A stretch of 24,040 nt of DNA from a virus (IMGVR_UViG_3300017991_002548:1-24040), one strand, 5' to 3'. Positions 5,478 to 23,850 are shown, counted from the stretch's first letter. Translations and numbers: made by a program. The notes: generated by a model not told the origin, from the letters alone.

Positions 5478-8400
5478 ATGTCTAACATAATTCTACCTGA
5501 TGATCCCGAATTTAATAAGCCTATTATTATGGGAAATCCATTTGAAGTAGATCCTACACAAGATCTTAATAAACAAGCTATTACCCCAGGAACTAAACAA
5601 GCCGAAATGGATCGTCAACGAGCAGAAAATCCACATATATTTAAGTATGCTAATACCTTGCCTAGCTCAAATCCTGAGTCGTGGCAAAATTCTATGACTA
5701 AAATTAGCCAATCTACTGGTGTGAGTAATATGATGACTCAACCAATGTGGTTTTCTCCTTTGCATACCCCCCAAAACTGGCAAGTAGCCAGCAAGAGACG
5801 TGAAGTATATCAGTGGAGCTTCGTACCAGATCACTGTTATTTGCTTAATTATGGGGATTTTTCACTATTAGATATTCAAGATGTATATACAAAACATAAG
5901 AATAACCAAACTATGTATATACAAAACAATAAAGGTGAAAAGGCGAGTCCAGATATATGCACGAAAAGATATGTAGAGAAACAAGTTAACACATTAAAAA
6001 TTATGGGTGTTTCTCATCCATTAAAAGTTACTCATGATCATAAATGCATGATTATTAAACGAGAACATGTTAAATGTACAAATGTAGACTCTCCAGGATG
6101 TCTTAAAGCCAAATGTGATTTACGACGTGCAATTGATTATAAAATATCTACAGTTAATGCCGAAGATGTGAGGAAGGGTGATTATGTTTTATGCCCATTC
6201 TCTACTGAAGTAAAAGAATCAGTCATAAAAACTAAAGAACAAGCTAGGTTTGCTGGACATGTGGCTTCAGATGGCTATGTTTCTAAAAAGGAATCTGGAG
6301 TTAGTATATTTTTACATCCAGATGAAGAAGAATTTGTAATGGATTCTGTCAAGCCTATATTTGATTCATATGGATCCAAAGCGAATCTTCAAAAAGATAC
6401 TCGTAGTAAACAGCTTATGTCAATGCGCAGCGGAAGCAAACAATTGCATGTCTTTGCATCTAGTTTAGTCAAGGGTTCAAACATACACAAGAAATATACT
6501 GATCAAGTTATGCTCCTTGATCCGAAACTACAGTTACATGTATTAGGAGCTTATATACAATCTGATGGTTCATATAATAAAGTAAATGAGCAAATAGAAA
6601 TAACTACATGTTCAAAACATTTAGCTAGCCAGTTGCAAATAATGTTCTATAGATGTGGAATTATGGCGTTTGCTAGTAGACAGCCAAGAGGGATTAAAAA
6701 TGGATACAAGACTAGTAATTCTCATTATTATATGATTAATGTTCCTAAAACATATGTATATATGTTGAAAGATTATGTTCCTGGAAAAATCCCAGAAAAT
6801 GTATATGAGCCAGTTGAAAAAAGTATATACAAAGATTCAAAATTCAGGGGCAAAAGCAATATATATTTCAAGAAAGATGAACATGAAATTCATCGCATTC
6901 AGAATAGATTTTTCTGGAAAAATTATGTTGTAACTCCTGTTGTATCAAACACTTGTGAAGATTATAAAGGTGATGTTTATGACATTCGAACTCCTCCTAC
7001 TTTTGCTATCACGGCAAATGGAATAGCTATTCATCAGTGTCGATTCTTCTATGAAGGAGAGCCGAAAGTTGCTGCTGCTATAGATTTTTATTGTTTCGCT
7101 CCTGAAACTCAAATTCTTATGGCTAATGGCTCTCAAAAATCTATTTCATCTATCGAACCTGGAGATGAAGTAGTATCACATTCAGGAAAAATTAACAAAG
7201 TAGCTAAAACTTTTGTTAGAGATGCATCTGAAGATATTTTGGAAATTCATTATTCTGGATCTAGTGAAATTCTGAGGGTAACATATGGTCATAAAATATT
7301 AGTCGAAGATAATGATTCAACAAAATACGTACAAGCACAAGAATTAAAGGTAGGAGATTATCTTTTAACTCCAATTAATCATCTTAATCTTGATCATGGT
7401 AGTGAACATGTAAAGAATTTAGATGGATGTGATTATATTTATCAGGAAATAAGAGATATAAATCATTCTGAGTTTGTTGGTAAATTATATGATTTAGAAA
7501 TAGAAAATGATCATTCTTACATAGCTAATGGAATAGCATGTTCGAACAGTCGCTTTCCTATGAATGGCTTTAAATTAGAATGCACTGACCCTAAAATCCT
7601 TAAATTCTTTGCTCATCATATTGTTAAAAAATTACATCTAAATGAACGATTTAAAGAAATATCTTCCGAATACTATATGCTCGGTGATGTGTTTGTACAT
7701 ACAGATATTCAATGTGATATTTGCGGAGGTACAGGAGAAGATCCAGATACTGGCGAACGATGTGATCATCCAGGAGGAAAACTCAGCCGTATCTTTATTA
7801 TGAATCCAGATTGGATAGAAGTACAAAGGTCCCCTTTAACAGATGAACCACTGATTGTATTAATACCTGACGAAGAATTACAACAAATAGTACATAAACG
7901 TCAACCAAAAGCAATCTATGATAGAATACCAGAACACTTAAAAGCTCTTATTTTATCTAGAGCACCTATTCCATTATCGAATAGAACAATATCTCACCTA
8001 AAACATATGTCAGTGCCTTATGGTACTTATGGTACCTCTATAATCAGAAGACTTTTTACTACTTTGGCTTACAAAACGAAGATTATGACTGCTAACTGGA
8101 TTGTAGCTGAACGACTTATACTTCCTGTGCGAGTAGTAAAAATAGGTAGTGACGCTCGTCCTGCTGCTACTCAAGATATTGCTGATGTACAACAACAATT
8201 GGCAAATGTTGCCAATGACCCTAACATGACAATAGTAACCCACCATAACTTCGAGTACGACTGGTATGGGACTTCTGGAAAAGTTCTTCAAATTACTCAG
8301 GAGATGGAACACATTGATAAAGAGTTGTTAGATGGCTTAATGCTTAATCAAGCCCTTTTAAATGGCGAAATGTGCCATTCTGAAGATACTGAGGTACTTA

Positions 8401-10538
8401 CAGAAGATGGATTCAAAACATATGATGAAATAACCAATGAACAGATTATGTGTTTTGATAGCACCTCTTCATGTATTAGGTTAGAACCTCCTTATAAATT
8501 ACATGTCTACGATTATGATGATGAATTGATTCATTTCTTGGGAGAACAATTAGACATTATGGTTACTCCACATCATAAGATGTTGGTTAGATCCCCACAT
8601 GGTGATAAATGGACAACTATCCTTGCTAAAGATGTAAAACCTGGAATGAGGTTTTTGGCTCATTCTGAGTATCAATGTAACTCTTATGCTGAAGACAGAA
8701 TTTCAATTGATGAGACAATCAGTATTGCTCCTAAAGACTTTTTTGAATATGCAGGATATTATTTATCTGAGGGTCATATGTCATGCCAGAAGAGCAATTA
8801 TCAGATTTCAATATCACAGTTGAAAAAATCGTCGGTTTTACAAACTATGTCATCTTGTGTTAGTAATATGGGTATGAATTTTAGCGAGTATGATTATGAT
8901 GACAGAACTACAAATTCTATTACTATCTGCAATAAGGAATTTGTACAATATATGAAAGAGAATTTTGGAACTCATGCAGAAAACAAAAAAATACCAGCTT
9001 GGATGAAAAATTATCCTGTTGATTATTTACATATACTGTTAAAAGCCCTGGTTGATGGTGATGGACATACAACCAAGCATAAAAATACAGAGAATCATGT
9101 TTATACTACTATATCAGAAGAATTAGCAGACGATGTGCAAGAAATAGCATTTAAATGTGGTTATAATGTAAGAAAAGCAATTCATGTTGATAGGACCAAA
9201 AACATAAATAGCAAAAGTCGATTATTATATAGGGTAAAATTCAGTAAAGGGACATGGAGCAAGGGAAACGAGCCACGACTGAAAGAGCATCATATAAATA
9301 AAGTTTCATATAAAGGCAAAGTTTGGTGTTTTACTACTTCAACTGGATTTTTTGTAACTCGCAGGAATGGGAAAATGACCATTCAAGGAAATAGCGGTTA
9401 CCAGTCAGCTCAAGTAGGTGTTGAAACTCTTATTCGTCGCATTGAATCATGGCGACATACATTAGCTGAATTTGCCGAAGAAAGAATATTTAAACCTGTA
9501 GCAGAAATGCAAGGATTTGTTAATGAAAAAGAAAGTGAAGAAGTTGGTGAAACTGTCTTCATGTATCCTACTATTAAATGGAACGAATTAGAATTAAAAG
9601 ATAAAACTCAATTCCACCAGTTGCTCAATCAATTACATGACAAACAAGTCATTTCCACTCAAACTTTATTAGAAGAGTTTGGATTTGATTATGATCAAGA
9701 AGTTATGCGCATGCGTCACGAGCAAGCTCAAGCTGGACCTGCTGGAGCAATGCTAGGTGGCGGTGGTGGAGCTGGAGGAATGCCTATGGGTGGAGGAGGA
9801 ATGCCTGGAGTAGGCAGTCCTGCTCAAGGTGGCATGCCAGGAGAAGGTATGGACCCCATGGGTGGTATGGGAGGTATGGGTGGAGGCATGGACATGGGTG
9901 GTGGTGGCATGCCTGGAGCTGTTGCGGAAGGTGGAAAAATTACAAAGAAGGGTAAAAGTAAAGCTTCAGAGGAAGCAGAAGCTCCACCTATGATGCCTAT
10001 AAAACTCACCAAGATTGAACAGAAAATGGCAGGAATGCTAGAAGAAGTAGCTAGTACTATGGGTTTCTCTCCTGCTAATATTCGCATGCAATTCCCAATT
10101 GAAAATCCCAAAGGTGGAAAACCCTTTACTATGGATTTTGCTCTTCCTCCATTGAAAATAGATATAGAAGCAGATGGTGAATTACACATGATTGCTGGAC
10201 ATGCAGAACATGATCAGGAGAGGGATTATTTATTAGCTCAGCGTGGATGGACAGTATTAAGATTTGATGACAAAGTCATAGAAGAGGCTCCTCATCACGT
10301 CAAAGCAACTATTAATTCATATATTACAAAAGCAATGCAAGCTCCATCTAAAACGGCATCTACAGACAATGACCATACAGTTGGTTACTTCTCTTATAGA
10401 GATGGATCACTAAAGGATTTAGGTAAAAATGCCCAGAAGTATTATGAAGGATTTGAGACCAGAGAACAAATTCATACTTCTGAACCAGTAGGGTCTCGTT
10501 CTGCGGAAGAATATTTTGCTACAGCAAGGAAAGTTTAA
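5478..10538 (+). CDS. Portal protein precursor with three inteins and a C-terminal DUF559-like domain
   Basis: Portal (head-tail connector) precursor of 1686 aa; removing inteins at residues 120-520, 539-690 and 966-1305 leaves 793 aa. The portal ring nucleates the prohead and is the DNA entry channel. Portal-like features in the exteins: YGTYGTSIIRRLFTTLAYKT; an aliphatic segment ending LPVRVVKIGS; and, once intein 3 is removed, NGEM joined to SGYQSAQVGVETLIRRIES, a conserved-looking portal motif. A zinc-knuckle-like module, C746-x2-C749GGTG...C762-x-H764, lies in the exteins. After the portal body come a Gly/Met-rich linker (about 1419-1490) and a DUF559-like domain (about 1528-1620). The start has only a weak GAGAACGG ribosome site. 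TAA overlaps the next ATG by one base. Portal assignment is from motif recognition and its neighbours. Confidence 0.85.
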   Translation: MSNIILPDDPEFNKPIIMGNPFEVDPTQDLNKQAITPGTKQAEMDRQRAENPHIFKYANTLPSSNPESWQNSMTKISQSTGVSNMMTQPMWFSPLHTPQNWQVASKRREVYQWSFVPDHCYLLNYGDFSLLDIQDVYTKHKNNQTMYIQNNKGEKASPDICTKRYVEKQVNTLKIMGVSHPLKVTHDHKCMIIKREHVKCTNVDSPGCLKAKCDLRRAIDYKISTVNAEDVRKGDYVLCPFSTEVKESVIKTKEQARFAGHVASDGYVSKKESGVSIFLHPDEEEFVMDSVKPIFDSYGSKANLQKDTRSKQLMSMRSGSKQLHVFASSLVKGSNIHKKYTDQVMLLDPKLQLHVLGAYIQSDGSYNKVNEQIEITTCSKHLASQLQIMFYRCGIMAFASRQPRGIKNGYKTSNSHYYMINVPKTYVYMLKDYVPGKIPENVYEPVEKSIYKDSKFRGKSNIYFKKDEHEIHRIQNRFFWKNYVVTPVVSNTCEDYKGDVYDIRTPPTFAITANGIAIHQCRFFYEGEPKVAAAIDFYCFAPETQILMANGSQKSISSIEPGDEVVSHSGKINKVAKTFVRDASEDILEIHYSGSSEILRVTYGHKILVEDNDSTKYVQAQELKVGDYLLTPINHLNLDHGSEHVKNLDGCDYIYQEIRDINHSEFVGKLYDLEIENDHSYIANGIACSNSRFPMNGFKLECTDPKILKFFAHHIVKKLHLNERFKEISSEYYMLGDVFVHTDIQCDICGGTGEDPDTGERCDHPGGKLSRIFIMNPDWIEVQRSPLTDEPLIVLIPDEELQQIVHKRQPKAIYDRIPEHLKALILSRAPIPLSNRTISHLKHMSVPYGTYGTSIIRRLFTTLAYKTKIMTANWIVAERLILPVRVVKIGSDARPAATQDIADVQQQLANVANDPNMTIVTHHNFEYDWYGTSGKVLQITQEMEHIDKELLDGLMLNQALLNGEMCHSEDTEVLTEDGFKTYDEITNEQIMCFDSTSSCIRLEPPYKLHVYDYDDELIHFLGEQLDIMVTPHHKMLVRSPHGDKWTTILAKDVKPGMRFLAHSEYQCNSYAEDRISIDETISIAPKDFFEYAGYYLSEGHMSCQKSNYQISISQLKKSSVLQTMSSCVSNMGMNFSEYDYDDRTTNSITICNKEFVQYMKENFGTHAENKKIPAWMKNYPVDYLHILLKALVDGDGHTTKHKNTENHVYTTISEELADDVQEIAFKCGYNVRKAIHVDRTKNINSKSRLLYRVKFSKGTWSKGNEPRLKEHHINKVSYKGKVWCFTTSTGFFVTRRNGKMTIQGNSGYQSAQVGVETLIRRIESWRHTLAEFAEERIFKPVAEMQGFVNEKESEEVGETVFMYPTIKWNELELKDKTQFHQLLNQLHDKQVISTQTLLEEFGFDYDQEVMRMRHEQAQAGPAGAMLGGGGGAGGMPMGGGGMPGVGSPAQGGMPGEGMDPMGGMGGMGGGMDMGGGGMPGAVAEGGKITKKGKSKASEEAEAPPMMPIKLTKIEQKMAGMLEEVASTMGFSPANIRMQFPIENPKGGKPFTMDFALPPLKIDIEADGELHMIAGHAEHDQERDYLLAQRGWTVLRFDDKVIEEAPHHVKATINSYITKAMQAPSKTASTDNDHTVGYFSYRDGSLKDLGKNAQKYYEGFETREQIHTSEPVGSRSAEEYFATARKV
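5835..7037 (+). mobile_element. Intein 1 of portal, 401 aa, with LAGLIDADG endonuclease
   Basis: Precursor residues 120-520. It starts with C120 (CYLLNYGDFSLL) and ends NGIAIHQ before extein C521. Block B is KVTHDHK (TxxH). Two LAGLIDADG-type motifs are FAGHVASDG (acidic D265) and LGAYIQSDG (D363), so the homing endonuclease looks intact. Block F is GDVYDIRTPPTFAITANGIA. The terminal residue is Gln where Asn is usual, with the penultimate His kept and Cys at +1. Removal joins FVPDH to CRFFYEGEP. It is more AT-rich than the exteins and contains three copies of GTATATAC. Confidence 0.92.
5882..5923. repeat. TGTATATACA pair inside portal intein 1
   Basis: ATGTATATACAAAACA occurs at 5881-5896 and again at 5913-5928, 32 bp apart. 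The two copies are read in different codon phases (VYTK versus MYIQN), and a third GTATATAC at 6823-6830 is in the remaining phase (SIYK). The conservation is therefore of nucleotides rather than amino acids. Confidence 0.85.
7092..7547 (+). mobile_element. Intein 2 of portal, 152-aa mini-intein
   Basis: Precursor residues 539-690. It starts with C539 (CFAPETQILMANGSQ), has block B LRVTYGHKILV and a typical block F, GKLYDLEIENDHSYIANGIA, and ends CSN before extein Ser691. The length leaves no room for an endonuclease domain. The usual penultimate His is Ser. Removal joins AAIDFY to SRFPMNGF. Only 18 extein residues separate it from intein 1. The N-terminal half resembles the protease intein (shared LMANG, GD.V and VT..H.IL patterns). 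Confidence 0.92.
8373..9392 (+). mobile_element. Intein 3 of portal, 340 aa, with LAGLIDADG endonuclease
   Basis: Precursor residues 966-1305. It starts with C966 (CHSEDTEVLTEDGFKTYDEI), has block B IMVTPHHKMLV, endonuclease motifs YAGYYLSEG (E1098) and LKALVDGDG (about 1188-1196), then GKVWCFTTSTGFFVTRRNGK and the end IQGN before Ser1306. The RRNGK...GN ending is common in phage inteins, with Gly in place of the penultimate His. Removal joins LLNGEM to SGYQSAQVG, one of the most conserved-looking stretches of the portal. Confidence 0.92.
10062..10340 (+). other. DUF559-like (PD-(D/E)XK-type) domain at the portal C terminus
   Basis: Residues about 1528-1620 carry the DUF559 pattern in order: MDF (D1553), IDIEADGELH (E1564, D1566, H1570), a DxxRD motif (D1579, R1582, D1583), then GWTVLRF (1590-1596) and a terminal helix with V and I spacing. 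DUF559 is related to Vsr-type nucleases. The acidic residues expected for metal binding are present, so the domain is not obviously dead. A Gly/Met-rich linker separates it from the portal body. There is no intein boundary here, so it should stay in the mature protein unless cleaved off. Confidence 0.75.
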
Positions 10539-13900: not shown

Positions 13901-13967
13901 CGGCGAAACAAAAATTGCTGATAAAATAGATGTACTATTGTCTAAAATCCAGGAAGAAAAAATATGA
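10956..13967 (+). CDS. Large hypothetical virion-type protein (1003 aa)
   Basis: 1003 aa, function not recognised. It starts inside the previous gene (8-nt overlap) with ATGGAG as ribosome site and ends in an ATGA overlap with the protease gene, so the three genes are probably translationally coupled. The first 50 residues hold three similar peptides, FLFKEA, FLFHEA and VLKEA, resembling phage prohead-protease cleavage contexts (hydrophobic-x-x-E/A). Residues 60-830 are a mixed alpha/beta body without a recognised motif. Residues about 870-935 are Pro/Glu/Val-rich and disordered. The tail (SVSERFIRSANKLDEIGETK then IADKIDVLLSKI) is helical and similar in layout to the C terminus of the protein encoded at 30-851. 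Minor structural or internal head protein is the best guess. Confidence 0.78.
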   Translation: MAKRIEGKVKTFLFKEAHNRREHQKQQFINKFLFHEAEDRFASVLKEAMPRGAGQSTLKNSGWNTVWDWSFPSERVEQIRQEIEEEFSPYFYDILHGKHKPIKAGITISDDKKQSSDDVQDGSIYFRFSYRRAVAPLPSDDPTQQAAHDVSQNALNTLNEILPGFREFADAIEANNVPLQPYHYGGDFSTASGGLTEGRKEFLFDFIKQERQRHSQGLEGAQTSTFYRQHEAMLDETGDIPISTRQARKKIFSNSDIPNVATFNDLFRAIQFKVQDGYTLNMPELTRTVKGLIDESLQKHQLDVQSQDPKERGYIDTYKYFYFTLFKDITTWFEAFATKGTSPTNVDVTLQELRLALAHLTTPTANGRHSLEPDQFSLSTRTPYYSNGWDSSPNNARQKMLTLPPLRQLPDGEVRYDRGNGNMGYDHLTSNWKDGVELFLSNWGPKCHEWYEILSTGNANEALSTQSPETFDAFQNVFNNRTSAENVLDIIAKSQGNWDDFKQNHLDKSFYSEIRTVYNGMKVLEAEKHLDPSPVRHKFPIQANPDSDVLQQVNEYAQQMLSLSKSSIEYATEMFDALNKNLIALYSNQELDWDTLTLALKQLNDARKLTNIKINPQDTTKANNWVGQTQEDATYKMDAKGFEAFRNFGYSTAKMMDFLSAVMTRCCVEQVNTREDGNPETFYGHQYSGSSGKGRGGEIILSVRYAFSAPELSQDPKIIQQVRDEQRKRHVRARSRLQRQTKFPEHAEPTGRFADPNDPESEVGIFEPLPNEQTPIVTIVENVEYFLGQAAGKRRFAKTIRHGLPWRHMIDQFMLMYPDVGDQLGVIFEPMNADLQRLELSCKRAIDKVRQGIEVHYTNDDGETTVLSSDQLQSESLELGDIPEVETEAPKSPEIPVTSPGVAQPTAPAVQEIPVPEMEVVDQQPVQTQEENVPPNVVKSMPSVNFVGKNRNNNRQLLRSHSHVLGSVSERFIRSANKLDEIGETKIADKIDVLLSKIQEEKI

Positions 13968-15889
13968 TAGAAAAACGAGCAGACTATCAAGTGGTTGATG
14001 CTCAACCATTAAATACACCCAATTTTAGTGAAAGCTTTATAAAAGATCAAGCGCTAAAAGTAGATGCAACTGTATTAGCTGATACTCTTACTAAGATTGC
14101 AAATTCATCAAAAGAGTCTAGTGATAAAAGTGGTGATGCAGCAGAATCACCAATATTTGATCTAGAAGCAGAAATTTCTAGTCATCCAGATTCATTGTTT
14201 ATAAAATGCTTTGCCATTAAAGCCAATGAAACTAATGAAAATGGTGATTATTTCTCTGTGGAAGAACTTATGAAAGCTACTCCTACTTTTGTGGGAGTGC
14301 CACTATTTACTAATCATGCTAATTCAGATATAAATGAAGCTCGTGGTAAAGTTGTCCATTCGTGGTGGGATGATGAACAAAATGGAATTATGATTATTGG
14401 AAGGGTTGATGCAGCTGCTTATCCTCAATTAGCCCGTGGTATAAAAGAAGAATATGTAGTTGGAACAAGTATGGGATGTTTTACTTCGAAGTGTCGCGTT
14501 TTAATGGCTAATGGGACCTATTTACCCATTTCTGAAGTCCAGGATGGCGACTTGGTATATACACACAAAGGAAGAACTCAAGAAGTTCTTAATGCTCAGA
14601 TTCGATATAAGAAAGAATTTATTAAGCAAATATCATTTGAAGGCTATTCTTCTGTTTTAGAAGTTACAAAAGAACATCCAATTCTAACTTTGAAAAATCC
14701 TGAAGATTCAGAAAATTTTTCTTCAGAAAATTTAACTTGGACTAAAGCTCAAGATTTAGGCGCTGGTGATTCTGTTTTGGATAGCGGTAATGTATATACA
14801 AAATCTGATGACTCAAAAAATAATGTATATACAAGTTCTGGATCGTATTTACTTCGAAAAATTAAGAAAATAGATAACCTGTTTTATGAGGGTCCAGTAT
14901 ATAATCTACAAGTAGCAAAAGATAATTCATATGTAGTGGAAGATGTTGCTGTTAAAAACTGTCAAGTACAATACTCACTATGCTCAATATGCCATAATTA
15001 CGCTGAAACTCCCGATCAGTACTGCTCTCATATAAGAGAACAAAAAACACGAGAAGTACATGCAAGAAAAGTTGAATGCGCATATCACAAACACGGCAAT
15101 GAAGAACAATGTCCAATCTGTGGAAGCAGAAAAGGAGAAAAGAAAGTTTTTGCAGTCAGTAGCAAAGCATTTGAGTACAATTATGGGATAAAATTTATCG
15201 AGAATTCCTTCGTAGTCAACCCTGCATGCCCAGATTGTGGAGTTACAGAAGTTATTGATCCTCATAAACTTCTAGCAAAAATTGCTGACATTCAAGCAGC
15301 ATTACCAAACCTTTTGAAAGTGGCTGCCGAACAAGATATGTTCTGCTCAGATAAACAATGCGTTAAATTAGCAGGACAAGCAGAATTAGATAGCCTAAAC
15401 CAAGCCTTAGATCTTGTAAGTTCTGTGTCCCAGTCTATGTTATCTCAAAAAGAGCAATTAGATCTGGAATTTTTAAGTGATTTAGTAAAAGTGTTAGCAG
15501 ATCTGCAAACCGTTGTTGATGAATTAACAGAACAAGGATATGGAAGGTTGCAATCTCCTAGTGGTGTTGGTGCTGATACTGATGAAATTCAAAAACCAAC
15601 TGGACCACCTATGGGTGATAATGTTACTCGATCAGTACAACCATTGAATCCTACTCCAGGAGGCGGATCTAAGATTCAAACAGGACCTGCAGGACAAGTA
15701 GGAACTGTTACAGGTCCTATGGCTCATAAAAAATTATTGCAATTGCAAAAATTAGCTACCAATCTAATTAAACGAACCGAACATAAATTTGAAATACCAG
15801 ACCTGCAAATAAGTCAAAAAAATATCAAATTAGCGTCTCAACGGCGTAAAAAGAGATTAAATTTGCGAATGAAATTGGACACAAAATAA
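13964..15889 (+). CDS. Prohead maturation protease precursor with mini-intein
   Basis: 641-aa precursor; 480 aa after loss of residues 172-332. It would cleave scaffold and other head proteins during capsid maturation. Protease evidence: a beta-rich N-terminal domain with LFTNHANSD (candidate catalytic H118) and GTSMG (candidate nucleophile S169), the His/Ser arrangement of phage prohead proteases of the herpesvirus-like fold. After the intein the protein continues as CQVQYSLCSICHNYAETPDQ followed by further Cys/His pairs (YCSH, ECAYHKHG, CPICG, CPDCG), a probable zinc-binding region. A helical segment (about 430-520) and a basic C terminus (ASQRRKKRLNLRMK) follow. ATG overlaps the upstream stop. 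The large putative scaffold gene is next downstream, as expected for a scaffold-processing enzyme. Confidence 0.85.
   Translation: MIEKRADYQVVDAQPLNTPNFSESFIKDQALKVDATVLADTLTKIANSSKESSDKSGDAAESPIFDLEAEISSHPDSLFIKCFAIKANETNENGDYFSVEELMKATPTFVGVPLFTNHANSDINEARGKVVHSWWDDEQNGIMIIGRVDAAAYPQLARGIKEEYVVGTSMGCFTSKCRVLMANGTYLPISEVQDGDLVYTHKGRTQEVLNAQIRYKKEFIKQISFEGYSSVLEVTKEHPILTLKNPEDSENFSSENLTWTKAQDLGAGDSVLDSGNVYTKSDDSKNNVYTSSGSYLLRKIKKIDNLFYEGPVYNLQVAKDNSYVVEDVAVKNCQVQYSLCSICHNYAETPDQYCSHIREQKTREVHARKVECAYHKHGNEEQCPICGSRKGEKKVFAVSSKAFEYNYGIKFIENSFVVNPACPDCGVTEVIDPHKLLAKIADIQAALPNLLKVAAEQDMFCSDKQCVKLAGQAELDSLNQALDLVSSVSQSMLSQKEQLDLEFLSDLVKVLADLQTVVDELTEQGYGRLQSPSGVGADTDEIQKPTGPPMGDNVTRSVQPLNPTPGGGSKIQTGPAGQVGTVTGPMAHKKLLQLQKLATNLIKRTEHKFEIPDLQISQKNIKLASQRRKKRLNLRMKLDTK
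14477..14959 (+). mobile_element. Intein 4, 161-aa mini-intein in the prohead protease
   Basis: Precursor residues 172-332. It starts with C172 (CFTSKCRVLMANGTYLPISE), has block B LEVTKEHPILT and block F GPVYNLQVAKDNSYVVEDVA, and ends VKN before Cys333. The penultimate residue is Lys instead of His. There is no endonuclease domain. Removal joins VVGTSMG to CQVQYSLCSIC, so the insertion lies three residues after candidate nucleophile S169 and directly before a probable metal-binding Cys. A pair of TGTATATACA palindromes sits where larger inteins carry their endonuclease. Confidence 0.92.
14791..14833. repeat. TGTATATACA pair inside the protease intein
   Basis: AATGTATATACAA occurs at 14789-14801 and 14822-14834, 33 bp apart, both in the same codon phase (NVYT). 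A partial copy, GTATATAC, is at 14555-14562. The pair sits between the N-terminal splicing blocks and block F, where larger inteins carry an endonuclease domain. Confidence 0.85.
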
Positions 15890-21811: not shown

Positions 21812-21908
21812 ATGATTGATAAGAATAGTCTTACGTCCGAACAAAAAGAGGCTGTGATCGCACAGGCACTCAATACAGACGAAGGTCGAACGGCTTTGGC
21901 CCAAGCGA
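21812..21908 (+). CDS. Major capsid protein, exon 1 (residues 1-32 and first base of codon 33)
   Basis: ATG 21812 follows AAGGAG by 7 nt and begins MIDKNSLTSEQKEAVIAQAL, the N-terminal helix of the capsid protein. Read without splicing it stops at TAA 21914-21916 after 34 residues. Splicing after A21908 to T23078 restores ...LAQA-M-VEPIRRSLEYQ in frame, for a total of 289 aa (97 + 773 nt = 290 codons including stop). The last exon bases GCGA pair with intron UCGC (21922-21925). Exon 1 is too short to be found by ordinary ORF calling. Confidence 0.82.
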
Positions 21909-23077
21909 AGGATTAACACCATCGCCACTGTGTATAATTCACAGTGAAAAAAAATGCTATATGCAGGAAAGTCCTGACACTTTCAACACACTAACAAGGT
22001 AACAGATGTTGATAGAACGGATAACCCGCAGGAAACCGAGAAAGTTAATATATGCTAAATGTTAAATGGTTGGCTGGTTTTTTTGATGCCGAAGGATCGG
22101 TTAGTTTTAACTATAAACCAAATATTGATTTGGTAAATACATCAGCTGCAACGATGTTTCAAATCAAAGATTTGATGAATAAGTTAAATATCGATTTAAA
22201 TATGAATTTTAGAGAAAAACCCTCAAAAAGCAGCAAAAAACCACGATGGGATATTTTTTTAAGACATGAATATCAAATTATTCCATTTATTAAACATATT
22301 GGACCATATGTATTTGGGAAGCAATTTCAATTACAAATGATTAAAGATTGGTACAATAAACCTTTTGATGGAATAAAAGAAAAGATACAATTTACTAACC
22401 AGGTAAATAATAAGATTATATCTAATTCAACAAAAGTAATGGAAAAATTAGGTGTCACAAAACTTGAAATATATGATGATATACCAGTATTAACTGATGA
22501 AGATTCATATATAACAACTAACACATTCAATGATATAGAATATTTTGCAGGGCTGTTGGATGGTGAAGGTACTATAAATATTCATTATAGAGCTTCATCA
22601 GGGACTTCACTAGGAAGATACACTCCACAAATCCTGTTTAATAATACAGATAAGATTATTATAAAATGCTATTGTTCTACTCTAGTAAATAACAATATTC
22701 CATATCATATATCATTTAGACAAGCTGGTACTACATCAAATCGTAGAAGATGGGATGTTATGGTTTCAGGTGTTAAACGGTGTGAAAGATTGTCCAGCTT
22801 GTTAGTAAACCATTTAGAAACTAAGAGAGAACAATGCAATCTCTTATTACAGTATTGTAAACACCGTTTACTTTCTCCTAAATCTATTAACGAATTAGGA
22901 AAAGAAACTAAAACGGCGTTACAACAAATGAGAAAAGGTATATATTAATTTGGGATCCTCAACGACTATATGCGTTTCATCCTTTCGTAGGATGGTGAGA
23001 TAGTCTGAACTGTATGGTAACATGCAGAGACAAGCAGAAATGACTTGTCCCACTCATAAGAGTGAGTAACAAAATTG
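21909..23077 (+). mobile_element. Group I intron in the major capsid gene, carrying a LAGLIDADG endonuclease
   Basis: 1169 nt. Helices seen: P1 GCGA/UCGC (21905-21908 with 21922-21925); P10 ACCA (21918-21921) with exon 2 UGGU (23078-23081); P2 CACUGUG/CACAGUG (21926-21946); possible P3 AAAUGC (21952-21957)/GCGUUU (22972-22977); P7 GACUA (22964-22968)/UAGUC (23001-23005), in the group I contexts CAACGACUA and AGAUAGUCUGAAC; P8 CAUCCU/AGGAUG (22978-22994); P9 CUGUAUG-GUAA-CAUGCAG (23010-23027) with a GNRA-type loop; two further hairpins at 23029-23049 and 23051-23064. The intron ends in G23077. A 12-bp helix, 22042-22053 with 22940-22951, brackets the endonuclease gene. The 5' splice site would be an A-U pair instead of the usual U-G. 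An alternative 5' site after U21913, pairing with GUCCU at 21971, lacks P10 support. Confidence 0.88.
22052..22948 (+). CDS. Intron-encoded LAGLIDADG homing endonuclease
   Basis: 298 aa, single-chain, with two LAGLIDADG-type motifs: WLAGFFDAEGSVS near residue 5 and YFAGLLDGEGTIN near residue 167, each with its acidic catalytic residue. It probably cuts intron-less capsid alleles near the GCGA/TGGT junction. Ribosome binding is weak (GAGAAAG, 22038-22044). Start codon and stop codon both lie within a 12-bp intron helix, so folding of the ribozyme and translation of the enzyme should compete. Base composition is AT-rich, in contrast to the GC-richer capsid exon 2. No inactivating stop is seen. 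Confidence 0.92.
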   Translation: MLNVKWLAGFFDAEGSVSFNYKPNIDLVNTSAATMFQIKDLMNKLNIDLNMNFREKPSKSSKKPRWDIFLRHEYQIIPFIKHIGPYVFGKQFQLQMIKDWYNKPFDGIKEKIQFTNQVNNKIISNSTKVMEKLGVTKLEIYDDIPVLTDEDSYITTNTFNDIEYFAGLLDGEGTINIHYRASSGTSLGRYTPQILFNNTDKIIIKCYCSTLVNNNIPYHISFRQAGTTSNRRRWDVMVSGVKRCERLSSLLVNHLETKREQCNLLLQYCKHRLLSPKSINELGKETKTALQQMRKGIY

Positions 23078-23850
23078 TGGTAGAACCAATTCGTCGTTCA
23101 TTGGAATATCAGGCAGTTGGTCGTAAACTGCTGTTGGTGGATGAACTTCCACAGGGAGCATTGGCACGCTACGAGAGAGATGTCTCGGCTATTGCTCATA
23201 TTATAGCTCGTCGAGGAGCTGTCCCTGATCAGATTCAGGAAGGTGAAGAAATTCTTGTCCCGACTTTCGAAATTGCAGCGAACCCGCAGGTTCGTCTTTC
23301 CGAGATTAAAGCTCGTCGATTCTATATCGTAGACCGGGCTCAAATCAAGGCTAAAGAAGCCATTCAGAAGGAAGAAGATTCGAATATCTTCAGTGCTCTT
23401 ATTGCAGCTGCTGACACACGTAATGATCAGATCGTCACCAACGTCGGTTCATTGTCGCCAGCTTCATTGAATACTGCTTTCCGTTTCATTGAGCAACACG
23501 ACTTGGTAGCAACCAAGATTATCGTTCATGCTAATCAGTATGCTTCGATTCGTGTATTCGGTAAGGATTTCTACGATGAAGCAACCACTCGCGAGATTTT
23601 GACCAGTGGTTTGTTTGGTCACGTGTGGACTGCAGACATTCACGTTTCGTCACGAATGGATGCAGATACAGTTATGGTTGTGGCAAGCCCTGACACTGTT
23701 GGCGCTTTCCCGATTCGCCAAGACATCACAGTTCTCCCCGCTGATGATCCTAAGAAATTACGACTCGGCTGGGTCATCTATGAGGAGGTTGGCATCGTTG
23801 TCGTAAACGATTACGCTTTGGCGAAGATTGAGGTAACTAGCGGAACGTAA
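23078..23850 (+). CDS. Major capsid protein, exon 2
   Basis: Main body of the HK97-fold-type major capsid protein: VEPIRRSLEYQ, LLLVDELPQGALARYERDVS, RRGAVPDQIQEGEEILVP, VRLSEIKARRFYIVDRAQIK, IFSALIAAADTRND, HANQYASIRVFGKDFYDEAT, TSGLFGHVWTADIHVSSRMD, TFPIRQ-like AFPIRQDITVLPADDPKKLR and LGWVIYEEVGIVVVNDYALA. These stretches match a phage capsid family that I recognise. A GTG at 23062 could head the frame in the unspliced sequence but lies inside the intron. Exon 2 is visibly GC-richer than its neighbours, as expected of a highly expressed gene. TAA ends at 23850, 40 nt before the terminator. Confidence 0.88.

What the first reader, a model, noticed from the sequence alone, without database searches (positions are those of the whole stretch)
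10062..10340. Portal protein with a C-terminal DUF559-like nuclease domain
Seen: D1553, E1564-x-D1566, H1570, D1579-x-x-R1582-D1583 and the VLRF motif, in the order and spacing of DUF559, at the end of the portal polypeptide behind a Gly/Met-rich linker. Known: DUF559 is a Vsr-related PD-(D/E)XK-type family. Inferred: a nuclease tethered to the DNA entry channel could cut, trim or guard DNA during packaging or exclude rival DNA; it could also be a captured homing-type nuclease that has settled in a head gene. I do not know of a described portal with this architecture.
Basis: partly seen in the sequence, partly recalled or inferred. Interest (0 to 1): 0.75.

Follow-up and report, generated by a model that had tools for sequence, protein, structure and literature searches.

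The report
Phage portal carrying a built-in nuclease
In a large group of uncultured giant phages, the ring protein through which DNA enters the virus head carries a DNA-cutting-type domain on a flexible tether, and this fusion is present in every complete member checked, which suggests that the DNA gate itself is an enzyme.

Summary
The window's portal ORF (1,686 aa; about 793 aa without its three inteins) ends, behind a ~90-aa Gly/Met/Pro linker, in a DUF559 domain (PF04480, E 4.7e-9). Its predicted fold (core pLDDT mostly 93-97) matches DUF559 protein 3HRL (Z 13.4), the EDxHD homing nuclease I-Bth0305I (Z 12.8) and Vsr (Z 10.6).

It is not a one-off. Searching IMG/VR with the portal core alone, every portal of this clade with an uncut 3' end has the tail: 73 non-redundant sequences, on contigs up to 548 kb. 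They form one clade (support 100/98); the group around Bacillus phage G lacks the tail. In the 73, E1514, D1553, E1564 and D1579 are invariant, H1570 is kept in 72 and D1566 in 70. Tail and core diverge together (Mantel r 0.79), under similar purifying selection in near pairs. In eight loci an intein sits at one site inside the nuclease motif. The terminase keeps its own nuclease motifs. No annotated phage genome searched showed this fusion.

So this is a fixed portal component, probably inside the head, not a recent homing capture. Its job is inferred: most likely DNA processing at the portal; a nuclease delivered with the DNA is the main rival.

The parts
5478..10538 (+). [quoted passage not shown]
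   Evidence: PHROG 16240 portal E 1.3e-31; intein-free homologue L088 has the portal fold, Z 16-20 against many solved portals
5835..7037 (+). intein 1 (aa 120-520, C...Q|C)
   Evidence: LAGLIDADG_3 matches three stretches of the ORF; boundaries from alignment with intein-free portals
7092..7547 (+). intein 2 (aa 539-690, C...N|S), mini-intein
   Evidence: Intein_splicing PF14890 E 7.1e-20; boundaries
7548..8372 (+). portal core (extein, aa 691-965)
   Evidence: 35% identical to phage G gp14 over this part; 50-73% to the tail-bearing relatives in IMG/VR
8373..9392 (+). intein 3 (aa 966-1305, C...N|S) with LAGLIDADG
   Evidence: LAGLIDADG_3 best stretch aa 1187-1236
9393..9722 (+). C-terminal part of the portal fold (aa 1306-1415)
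   Evidence: aligned to other portals; the corresponding part of L088 ends the fold that matches the C-terminal (crown) end of T4 gp20, lambda and P1 portals
9723..9995 (+). Gly/Met/Pro-rich linker ending in a basic KKGK-type patch (aa 1416-1506)
   Evidence: linker of this kind across the clade: median 101 aa, 33% Gly, 13% Pro, 12% Met; basic patch seen in alignment A6
9999..10343 (+). DUF559 / EDxHD (Vsr-type) nuclease domain (aa 1508-1622)
   Evidence: Pfam DUF559 E 4.2e-9; AlphaFold2 core pLDDT mostly 93-97; 3HRL Z 13.4, I-Bth0305I Z 12.8, Vsr Z 10.6; catalytic residues conserved
10344..10535 (+). poorly conserved C-terminal extension (aa 1623-1686)
   Evidence: low pLDDT and little conservation

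Best explanation
The portal of this phage clade is a two-part protein: a normal portal ring subunit and, on a ~100-residue flexible tether after the last (crown) part of the fold, an EDxHD/Vsr-type endonuclease domain. SHOWN here: the domain, its predicted fold, its conserved catalytic set, its presence in all complete members of the clade, its vertical inheritance and purifying selection, and an intact terminase nuclease motif set beside it. INFERRED from solved portals: the tether leaves from the crown, which faces the head interior, so up to twelve nuclease domains hang at the inner mouth of the DNA channel. INFERRED function: it acts on the phage's own DNA at the portal during packaging and head maturation (removing or nicking branched, mismatched or aberrantly modified DNA, or trimming the DNA end), in the manner of T4's portal-associated resolvase gp49 and its head nuclease gp4, but covalently built into the portal. 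It would have to be selective or held inactive so as not to destroy the packaged genome.
For: DUF559 by Pfam; fold and structural matches; profile search hits 3HRL at 1e-8 and I-Bth0305I at 8.6e-7. Portal-core searches independent of the tail: every clade portal with an uncut 3' end has the tail. One clade, 100/98. E1514, D1553, E1564, D1579, R1582, D1583, W1591, R1595 in 73/73, H1570 in 72/73, D1566 in 70/73. dN/dS 0.06-0.08 in near pairs, similar to the core. Core and tail distances correlate, Mantel r 0.79, best of 2,000 permutations 0.16. Eight inteins in the motif at one site, E1564|C1565. Full-length intein-free homologue: portal fold over residues 96-519, then linker, then nuclease. Terminase D/D/D nuclease motifs present in six contigs. 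Precedents: T4 gp49 with gp20 (PMC10893049); T4 gp4-type REase-fold head nuclease required for packaging (PMC7824862); crown and wing contact packaged DNA in T4, and C-terminal GFP fusions of gp20 still package (PMC9958956).
Against: No enzymatic activity has been shown. An active nuclease inside the head is a danger to the genome and would need control, for which no inhibitor was found or sought. T4 gp49 acts on DNA stalled outside the channel, whereas a crown tether points inward. Three of 73 members changed D1566 (to E or C), and the window copy has lost the Trp before the His. The tail evolves faster than the core (43% against 59% mean identity). The topology comes from homology and a medium-confidence model (mean pLDDT 65), not from an assembled dodecamer.
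Confidence: 0.45

Rival explanations
1. Cargo nuclease: the tail is cut from the portal by the head maturation protease, stays inside the capsid as a free internal protein, and is ejected with the DNA to attack the host chromosome or rival DNA in the next cell, as proposed for MuF toxins.
For: The tail is expected inside the head on a long, probably accessible linker with a recurrent basic patch. A protease-like gene lies downstream (13964-15889; weak match to PHROG 18299 head maturation protease). More than half of the putative MuF toxins have nuclease domains (PMC5576092).
Against: Toxin domains of that kind are exchanged among unrelated types; here one domain type is fixed in the whole clade and co-diverges with the portal. 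No conserved cleavage motif was identified, and no immunity gene was sought.
Confidence: 0.25
2. Non-catalytic module: the nuclease fold only binds DNA, or anchors the genome end or a scaffold at the portal.
For: D1566 is changed in 3 of 73 and the window copy lost the conserved Trp.
Against: The metal-binding and catalytic set E1514, D1553, H1570, D1579 is kept in 72-73 of 73 non-redundant members down to 42% core and 25% tail identity.
Confidence: 0.15
3. Captured homing-type nuclease, a selfish passenger that settled in a head gene.
For: A close fold relative is the homing nuclease I-Bth0305I, and the gene is crowded with LAGLIDADG inteins.
Against: It is not sporadic: no clade member with a complete 3' end lacks it, and one origin suffices on the tree. 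No DNA-recognition domain was found. Purifying selection similar to the portal core in near pairs. A homing origin long ago is not excluded.
Confidence: 0.06
4. Replacement for a terminase large subunit that has lost its nuclease.
For: Position at the packaging channel.
Against: Six terminases from the same contigs keep the Walker motifs and all three acidic nuclease motifs, HLDPA, YDxWNS and TDDxxD.
Confidence: 0.02

Closest known systems
Bacillus (Lysinibacillus) phage G portal gp14
   Same: Nearest annotated portal, 35% identity over the aligned core, also with a Gly/Pro-rich C-terminal region
   Different: No DUF559 domain in the portal or anywhere in its 497-kb genome
NGO0050 (PDB 3HRL), DUF559-type protein of Neisseria gonorrhoeae
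   Same: Same fold, rmsd 1.7 over 94 residues, Z 13.4, and the D...ExDG...D motif
   Different: Stand-alone small bacterial protein; biological role not known to me
I-Bth0305I (EDxHD homing endonuclease, phage intron)
   Same: Same catalytic-domain fold, Z 12.8; the E-x-x-G motif and the D of the helix align
   Different: Has extended DNA-binding regions and moves an intron (PMC3943268); the portal tail shows neither
Vsr mismatch endonuclease
   Same: Fold Z 10.6; the D, the H of WH and the helix D align
   Different: Stand-alone repair enzyme for T:G mismatches (own knowledge); no Glu at the E1564 position
T4 endonuclease VII (gp49) bound to portal gp20
   Same: A nuclease that associates with the portal and releases stalled branched DNA in packaging (PMC10893049)
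   Different: Separate protein, unrelated fold, acts on DNA at the outer side
T4 gp4-type head completion nuclease
   Same: REase-fold nuclease in the head, reported to be required for packaging (PMC7824862); TnsA, said there to be its relative, gives about Z 7 to our tail
   Different: Separate protein, not fused to a portal; found in other phage groups
MuF polymorphic toxins
   Same: Head protein encoded next to the portal, some with a C-terminal nuclease domain (PMC5576092)
   Different: MuF is a separate minor head protein, its toxin domains are exchanged and most MuF proteins lack one; here one domain is fixed on the portal itself

Membership tests
Pfam DUF559 (PF04480) | Profile score above the curated cut-off of 20.6 bits | tested here: met
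   36.5 bits for the window protein; all 25 tails scanned match at E 0.01 or better
PD-(D/E)XK / EDxHD (Vsr-type) nuclease | alpha-beta-beta-beta-alpha-beta core | tested here: met
   AlphaFold2 core pLDDT mostly 93-97, order H-E-E-E-H-E-H-H; 3HRL, I-Bth0305I and Vsr are ranks 1-3 by Z
PD-(D/E)XK / EDxHD (Vsr-type) nuclease | conserved E, D, H, D active-site residues | tested here: met
   E1514 73/73, D1553 73/73, H1570 72/73, D1579 73/73; D, H and D align with Vsr D51, H69, D97 through (Vsr numbering and roles from my own knowledge)
PD-(D/E)XK / EDxHD (Vsr-type) nuclease | metal-dependent DNA cleavage | not testable with these tools
   no biochemical assay
Tailed-phage portal protein | portal fold and sequence profile | tested here: met
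   PHROG 16240 portal E 1.3e-31 (window) and 1.4e-39 (L088); L088 model aligns to solved portals at Z 16-20 over residues ~96-519
Homing endonuclease | sporadic presence at an insertion site, with empty sites among close relatives | tested here: not met
   every complete portal of the clade has the domain; one change on the tree
Homing endonuclease | additional DNA-recognition region | tested here: not met
   Pfam finds only DUF559 in the tail of the window protein; the rest is linker or a low-confidence extension
Polymorphic (MuF-type) toxin | C-terminal toxin domain exchanged among unrelated types | tested here: not met
   one domain type throughout, co-diverging with the core, Mantel r 0.79
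Polymorphic (MuF-type) toxin | MuF domain (PF04233/PF06152) | tested here: not met
   no MuF match in the Pfam scans of the portal

The most novel reading that the evidence does not exclude
The portal of a clade of huge phages is itself an enzyme: a twelve-fold set of tethered endonucleases at the inner mouth of the DNA channel inspects or processes the genome as it is packaged, a packaging-coupled DNA quality-control or end-processing device built into the portal rather than the terminase.
Probability: 0.4. Interest if true: 0.87.

Novelty: new variant of a known kind. Interest (0 to 1): 0.72.

Why it matters
Portals are usually regarded as passive rings and sensors, with DNA cutting left to the terminase. 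A nuclease fixed on the portal through the history of a clade, with its active site preserved, suggests that cutting DNA (or holding it with a nuclease fold) at the portal is needed by these phages. It makes a specific question testable (what is done to DNA at the head-side mouth of the channel?), offers a ready biochemical object (a compact domain with a predicted active site), and gives a sequence marker for a clade of large uncultured phages with no close isolate.

Tried and rejected
Terminase lacks its nuclease and the portal supplies it: rejected, terminase motifs intact in six contigs. Mobile or homing passenger: disfavoured by fixation, a single change on the tree and constraint similar to the core. 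Swappable toxin cassette: disfavoured by congruent divergence. Assembly artefact: rejected, the same architecture occurs in 73 non-redundant portals. Missing Holliday-junction resolvase that the tail could replace: inconclusive. In five large contigs of the clade (334-548 kb) there was no RuvC or RusA match and Endo VII in one of five, but the contigs may be fragments and other resolvase families were not sought. TnsA-type (gp4-like) nuclease: no match in the same five contigs, equally inconclusive. The PDB profile search beyond 3HRL and I-Bth0305I gives Vsr only at E 5; the Vsr link rests on fold. A Foldseek search of predicted viral structures listed DUF559 and endonuclease proteins in its top 50 and no named portal, though many rows have no name. 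Papers: no description of a portal with a DUF559 or Vsr domain was seen in the searches made, judged from titles, abstracts and a few papers read in part; most subscription journals are not held. PADLOC and NCBIfam scans failed on a coordinate error and were not repeated.

Full report
WHAT WAS CLAIMED.

THE OBSERVATION. The ORF at 5478-10538 encodes 1,686 aa. PHROG 16240 (portal) matches at 1.3e-31 and Pfam DUF559 matches aa 1550-1614 at 4.7e-9. The named residues are all at the stated positions. The ORF also contains three inteins, at aa 120-520, 539-690 and 966-1305; without them the protein is about 793 aa: N-terminal region, portal fold, a Gly/Met/Pro-rich linker (aa 1416-1506), nuclease domain (aa 1508-1622), and a poorly conserved end. 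The window is identical to nt 12900-36939 of the 65.8-kb IMG/VR contig 3300018080_003823.

FOLD. AlphaFold2 with 31 related tails gives pLDDT mostly 93-97 in the core, with elements helix, three strands, helix, strand, helices. Foldseek puts the catalytic domain of the homing endonuclease I-Bth0305I first (E 3.4e-4) and DUF559-type protein 3HRL third. VIA-align gives 3HRL Z 13.4 (rmsd 1.7, 94 of 94 residues), I-Bth0305I Z 12.8, Vsr Z 10.6, and TnsA about Z 7; by the tool's own note, values under 8 may be only a common arrangement. A profile of the tails finds 3HRL at 1e-8 and I-Bth0305I at 8.6e-7, and shows D1553, H1570 and the helix D aligned with the D, WH and D of Vsr.

DISTRIBUTION. A search of IMG/VR with the tail alone gives 33 loci, all but one of which lie at the end of a portal of this type (the exception, L084, is a 278-aa ORF). 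The converse test is the stronger one: searches with the portal core alone fetched portals irrespective of their ends. Of these, every portal of the clade whose 3' end is not cut by the contig has the tail; 73 remain at under 97% core identity. The phage-G group (phage G itself and its IMG/VR relatives) lacks it, and phage G has no DUF559 anywhere. A maximum-likelihood tree of 85 cores puts all 73 tail-bearing portals on one side of one branch, support 100/98, in 100% of bootstrap trees. Since the tree is unrooted, gain in this clade and loss in the other cannot be told apart by it; gain is the simpler reading because more distant portals (Rctr197k, LR745208, Eggerthella and Tunturiibacter phages) also come from genomes without a DUF559 match. 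Contigs of the clade reach 548 kb, so at least some are huge phages. tblastn against 50,697 phage records shows no portal with such a tail: the rows listed are helicases, endonucleases or unnamed proteins. The only hit in a scan of 84,980 prokaryote genomes is a stand-alone 202-aa protein in a Lokiarchaeota MAG, though that scan depends on short patterns and finds close relatives only.

CONSTRAINT. In 73 non-redundant tails T1511, E1514, D1553, E1564, D1579, R1582, D1583, W1591 and R1595 are invariant, Q1538 and H1570 are kept in 72, and D1566 in 70 (two Glu, one Cys). Near pairs with less saturated silent sites give dN/dS of 0.057, 0.080 and 0.071 in the tail and 0.067, 0.084 and 0.052 in the core (more distant pairs, with silent sites near saturation, give higher and unreliable values and are not used). 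Distances in tail and core correlate at r 0.79 (best of 2,000 permutations 0.16), so the tail is inherited with the portal and not swapped. Eight loci have an intein inserted between E1564 and C1565, in the middle of the catalytic motif. Inteins favour essential, highly conserved motifs (general knowledge), so this is independent support for the importance of the site.

PLACE IN THE VIRION. The intein-free homologue L088 (779 aa) was modelled with 22 relatives: mean pLDDT 65, the portal part mostly well above that, the linker under 50, the nuclease about 62-85. It aligns to many solved portals at Z 16-20 over residues 96 to about 519, which reach the C-terminal end of the T4, lambda and P1 portal chains; the linker follows at once. 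In T4 gp20 the stem, wing and crown lie inside the capsid and the crown and wing touch packaged DNA; C-terminal GFP fusions of gp20 are tolerated and still package (PMC9958956). By homology the nuclease should hang inside the head at the inner mouth of the channel. This is inference, not shown.

FUNCTION. A substitute for a lost terminase nuclease is contradicted: terminases from six of the contigs keep Walker A and B and all three acidic motifs. Two roles remain in front. (a) Processing of the phage's own DNA at the portal: precedents are T4 endonuclease VII, which associates with the portal gp20 and frees stalled branched DNA (PMC10893049), and the REase-fold head nuclease gp4, whose activity is reported to be required for packaging (PMC7824862). 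(b) A nuclease released from the portal by the head protease and ejected with the DNA, by analogy with MuF toxins (PMC5576092). Fixation and congruent divergence favour a constant job in head assembly, hence (a), but an inward-facing tether fits (b) as well as (a). I give (a) 0.45, (b) 0.25, a non-catalytic module 0.15, a homing passenger 0.06. A search for resolvases in five large contigs is suggestive only: no RuvC or RusA, Endo VII in one, with possibly incomplete contigs and many families untested.

VERDICT. Both halves are known kinds; the fixed fusion of a nuclease to a portal was not found in the annotated phages searched nor in the papers searched. New variant of a known kind, with a testable and unexpected implication.

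Noticed in passing
window 21812-23850: The major capsid protein gene is split: a first exon near 21812-21911 (MIDKNSLTSEQKEAVIAQALNTDEGRTALAQA), about 1.1 kb of intervening sequence with a LAGLIDADG ORF (22052-22948), then the rest; uninterrupted homologues join as LAQAMVEPIRRS. No Rfam match to a known intron.
   Followed up: partly
window 13964-15889: A protease-like head gene carries a mini-intein right at a GTSMG|C motif, so that the presumed catalytic Ser region is rebuilt only by splicing.
   Followed up: no
L023 4050-6395 (65.8-kb contig, upstream of the window): The terminase large subunit has a mini-intein of about 154 aa inside Walker A (GRR|C...HN|SGKD).
   Followed up: partly
L011, L015, L017, L131, L141, L142, L150, L086: Inteins of about 365-390 aa at one and the same site inside the nuclease motif (E|C...N|CDG) in eight portals (in L141 the downstream end is cut by the contig).
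   Followed up: yes
L065, L067, L071: A small subgroup has changed the D1566 position to Glu or Cys (IEAEGEVWH, IETCGEIWH, VEACGEVWH), perhaps an altered active site.
   Followed up: no
L087 5632-6240: A stand-alone DUF559-like protein with the same motif in a Lokiarchaeota MAG is the only relative found in the scan of prokaryote genomes.
   Followed up: no
L004 7257-9641: The portal of virus Rctr197k has a different C-terminal region behind a Gly-rich linker, so accessory portal tails may be more varied.
   Followed up: no
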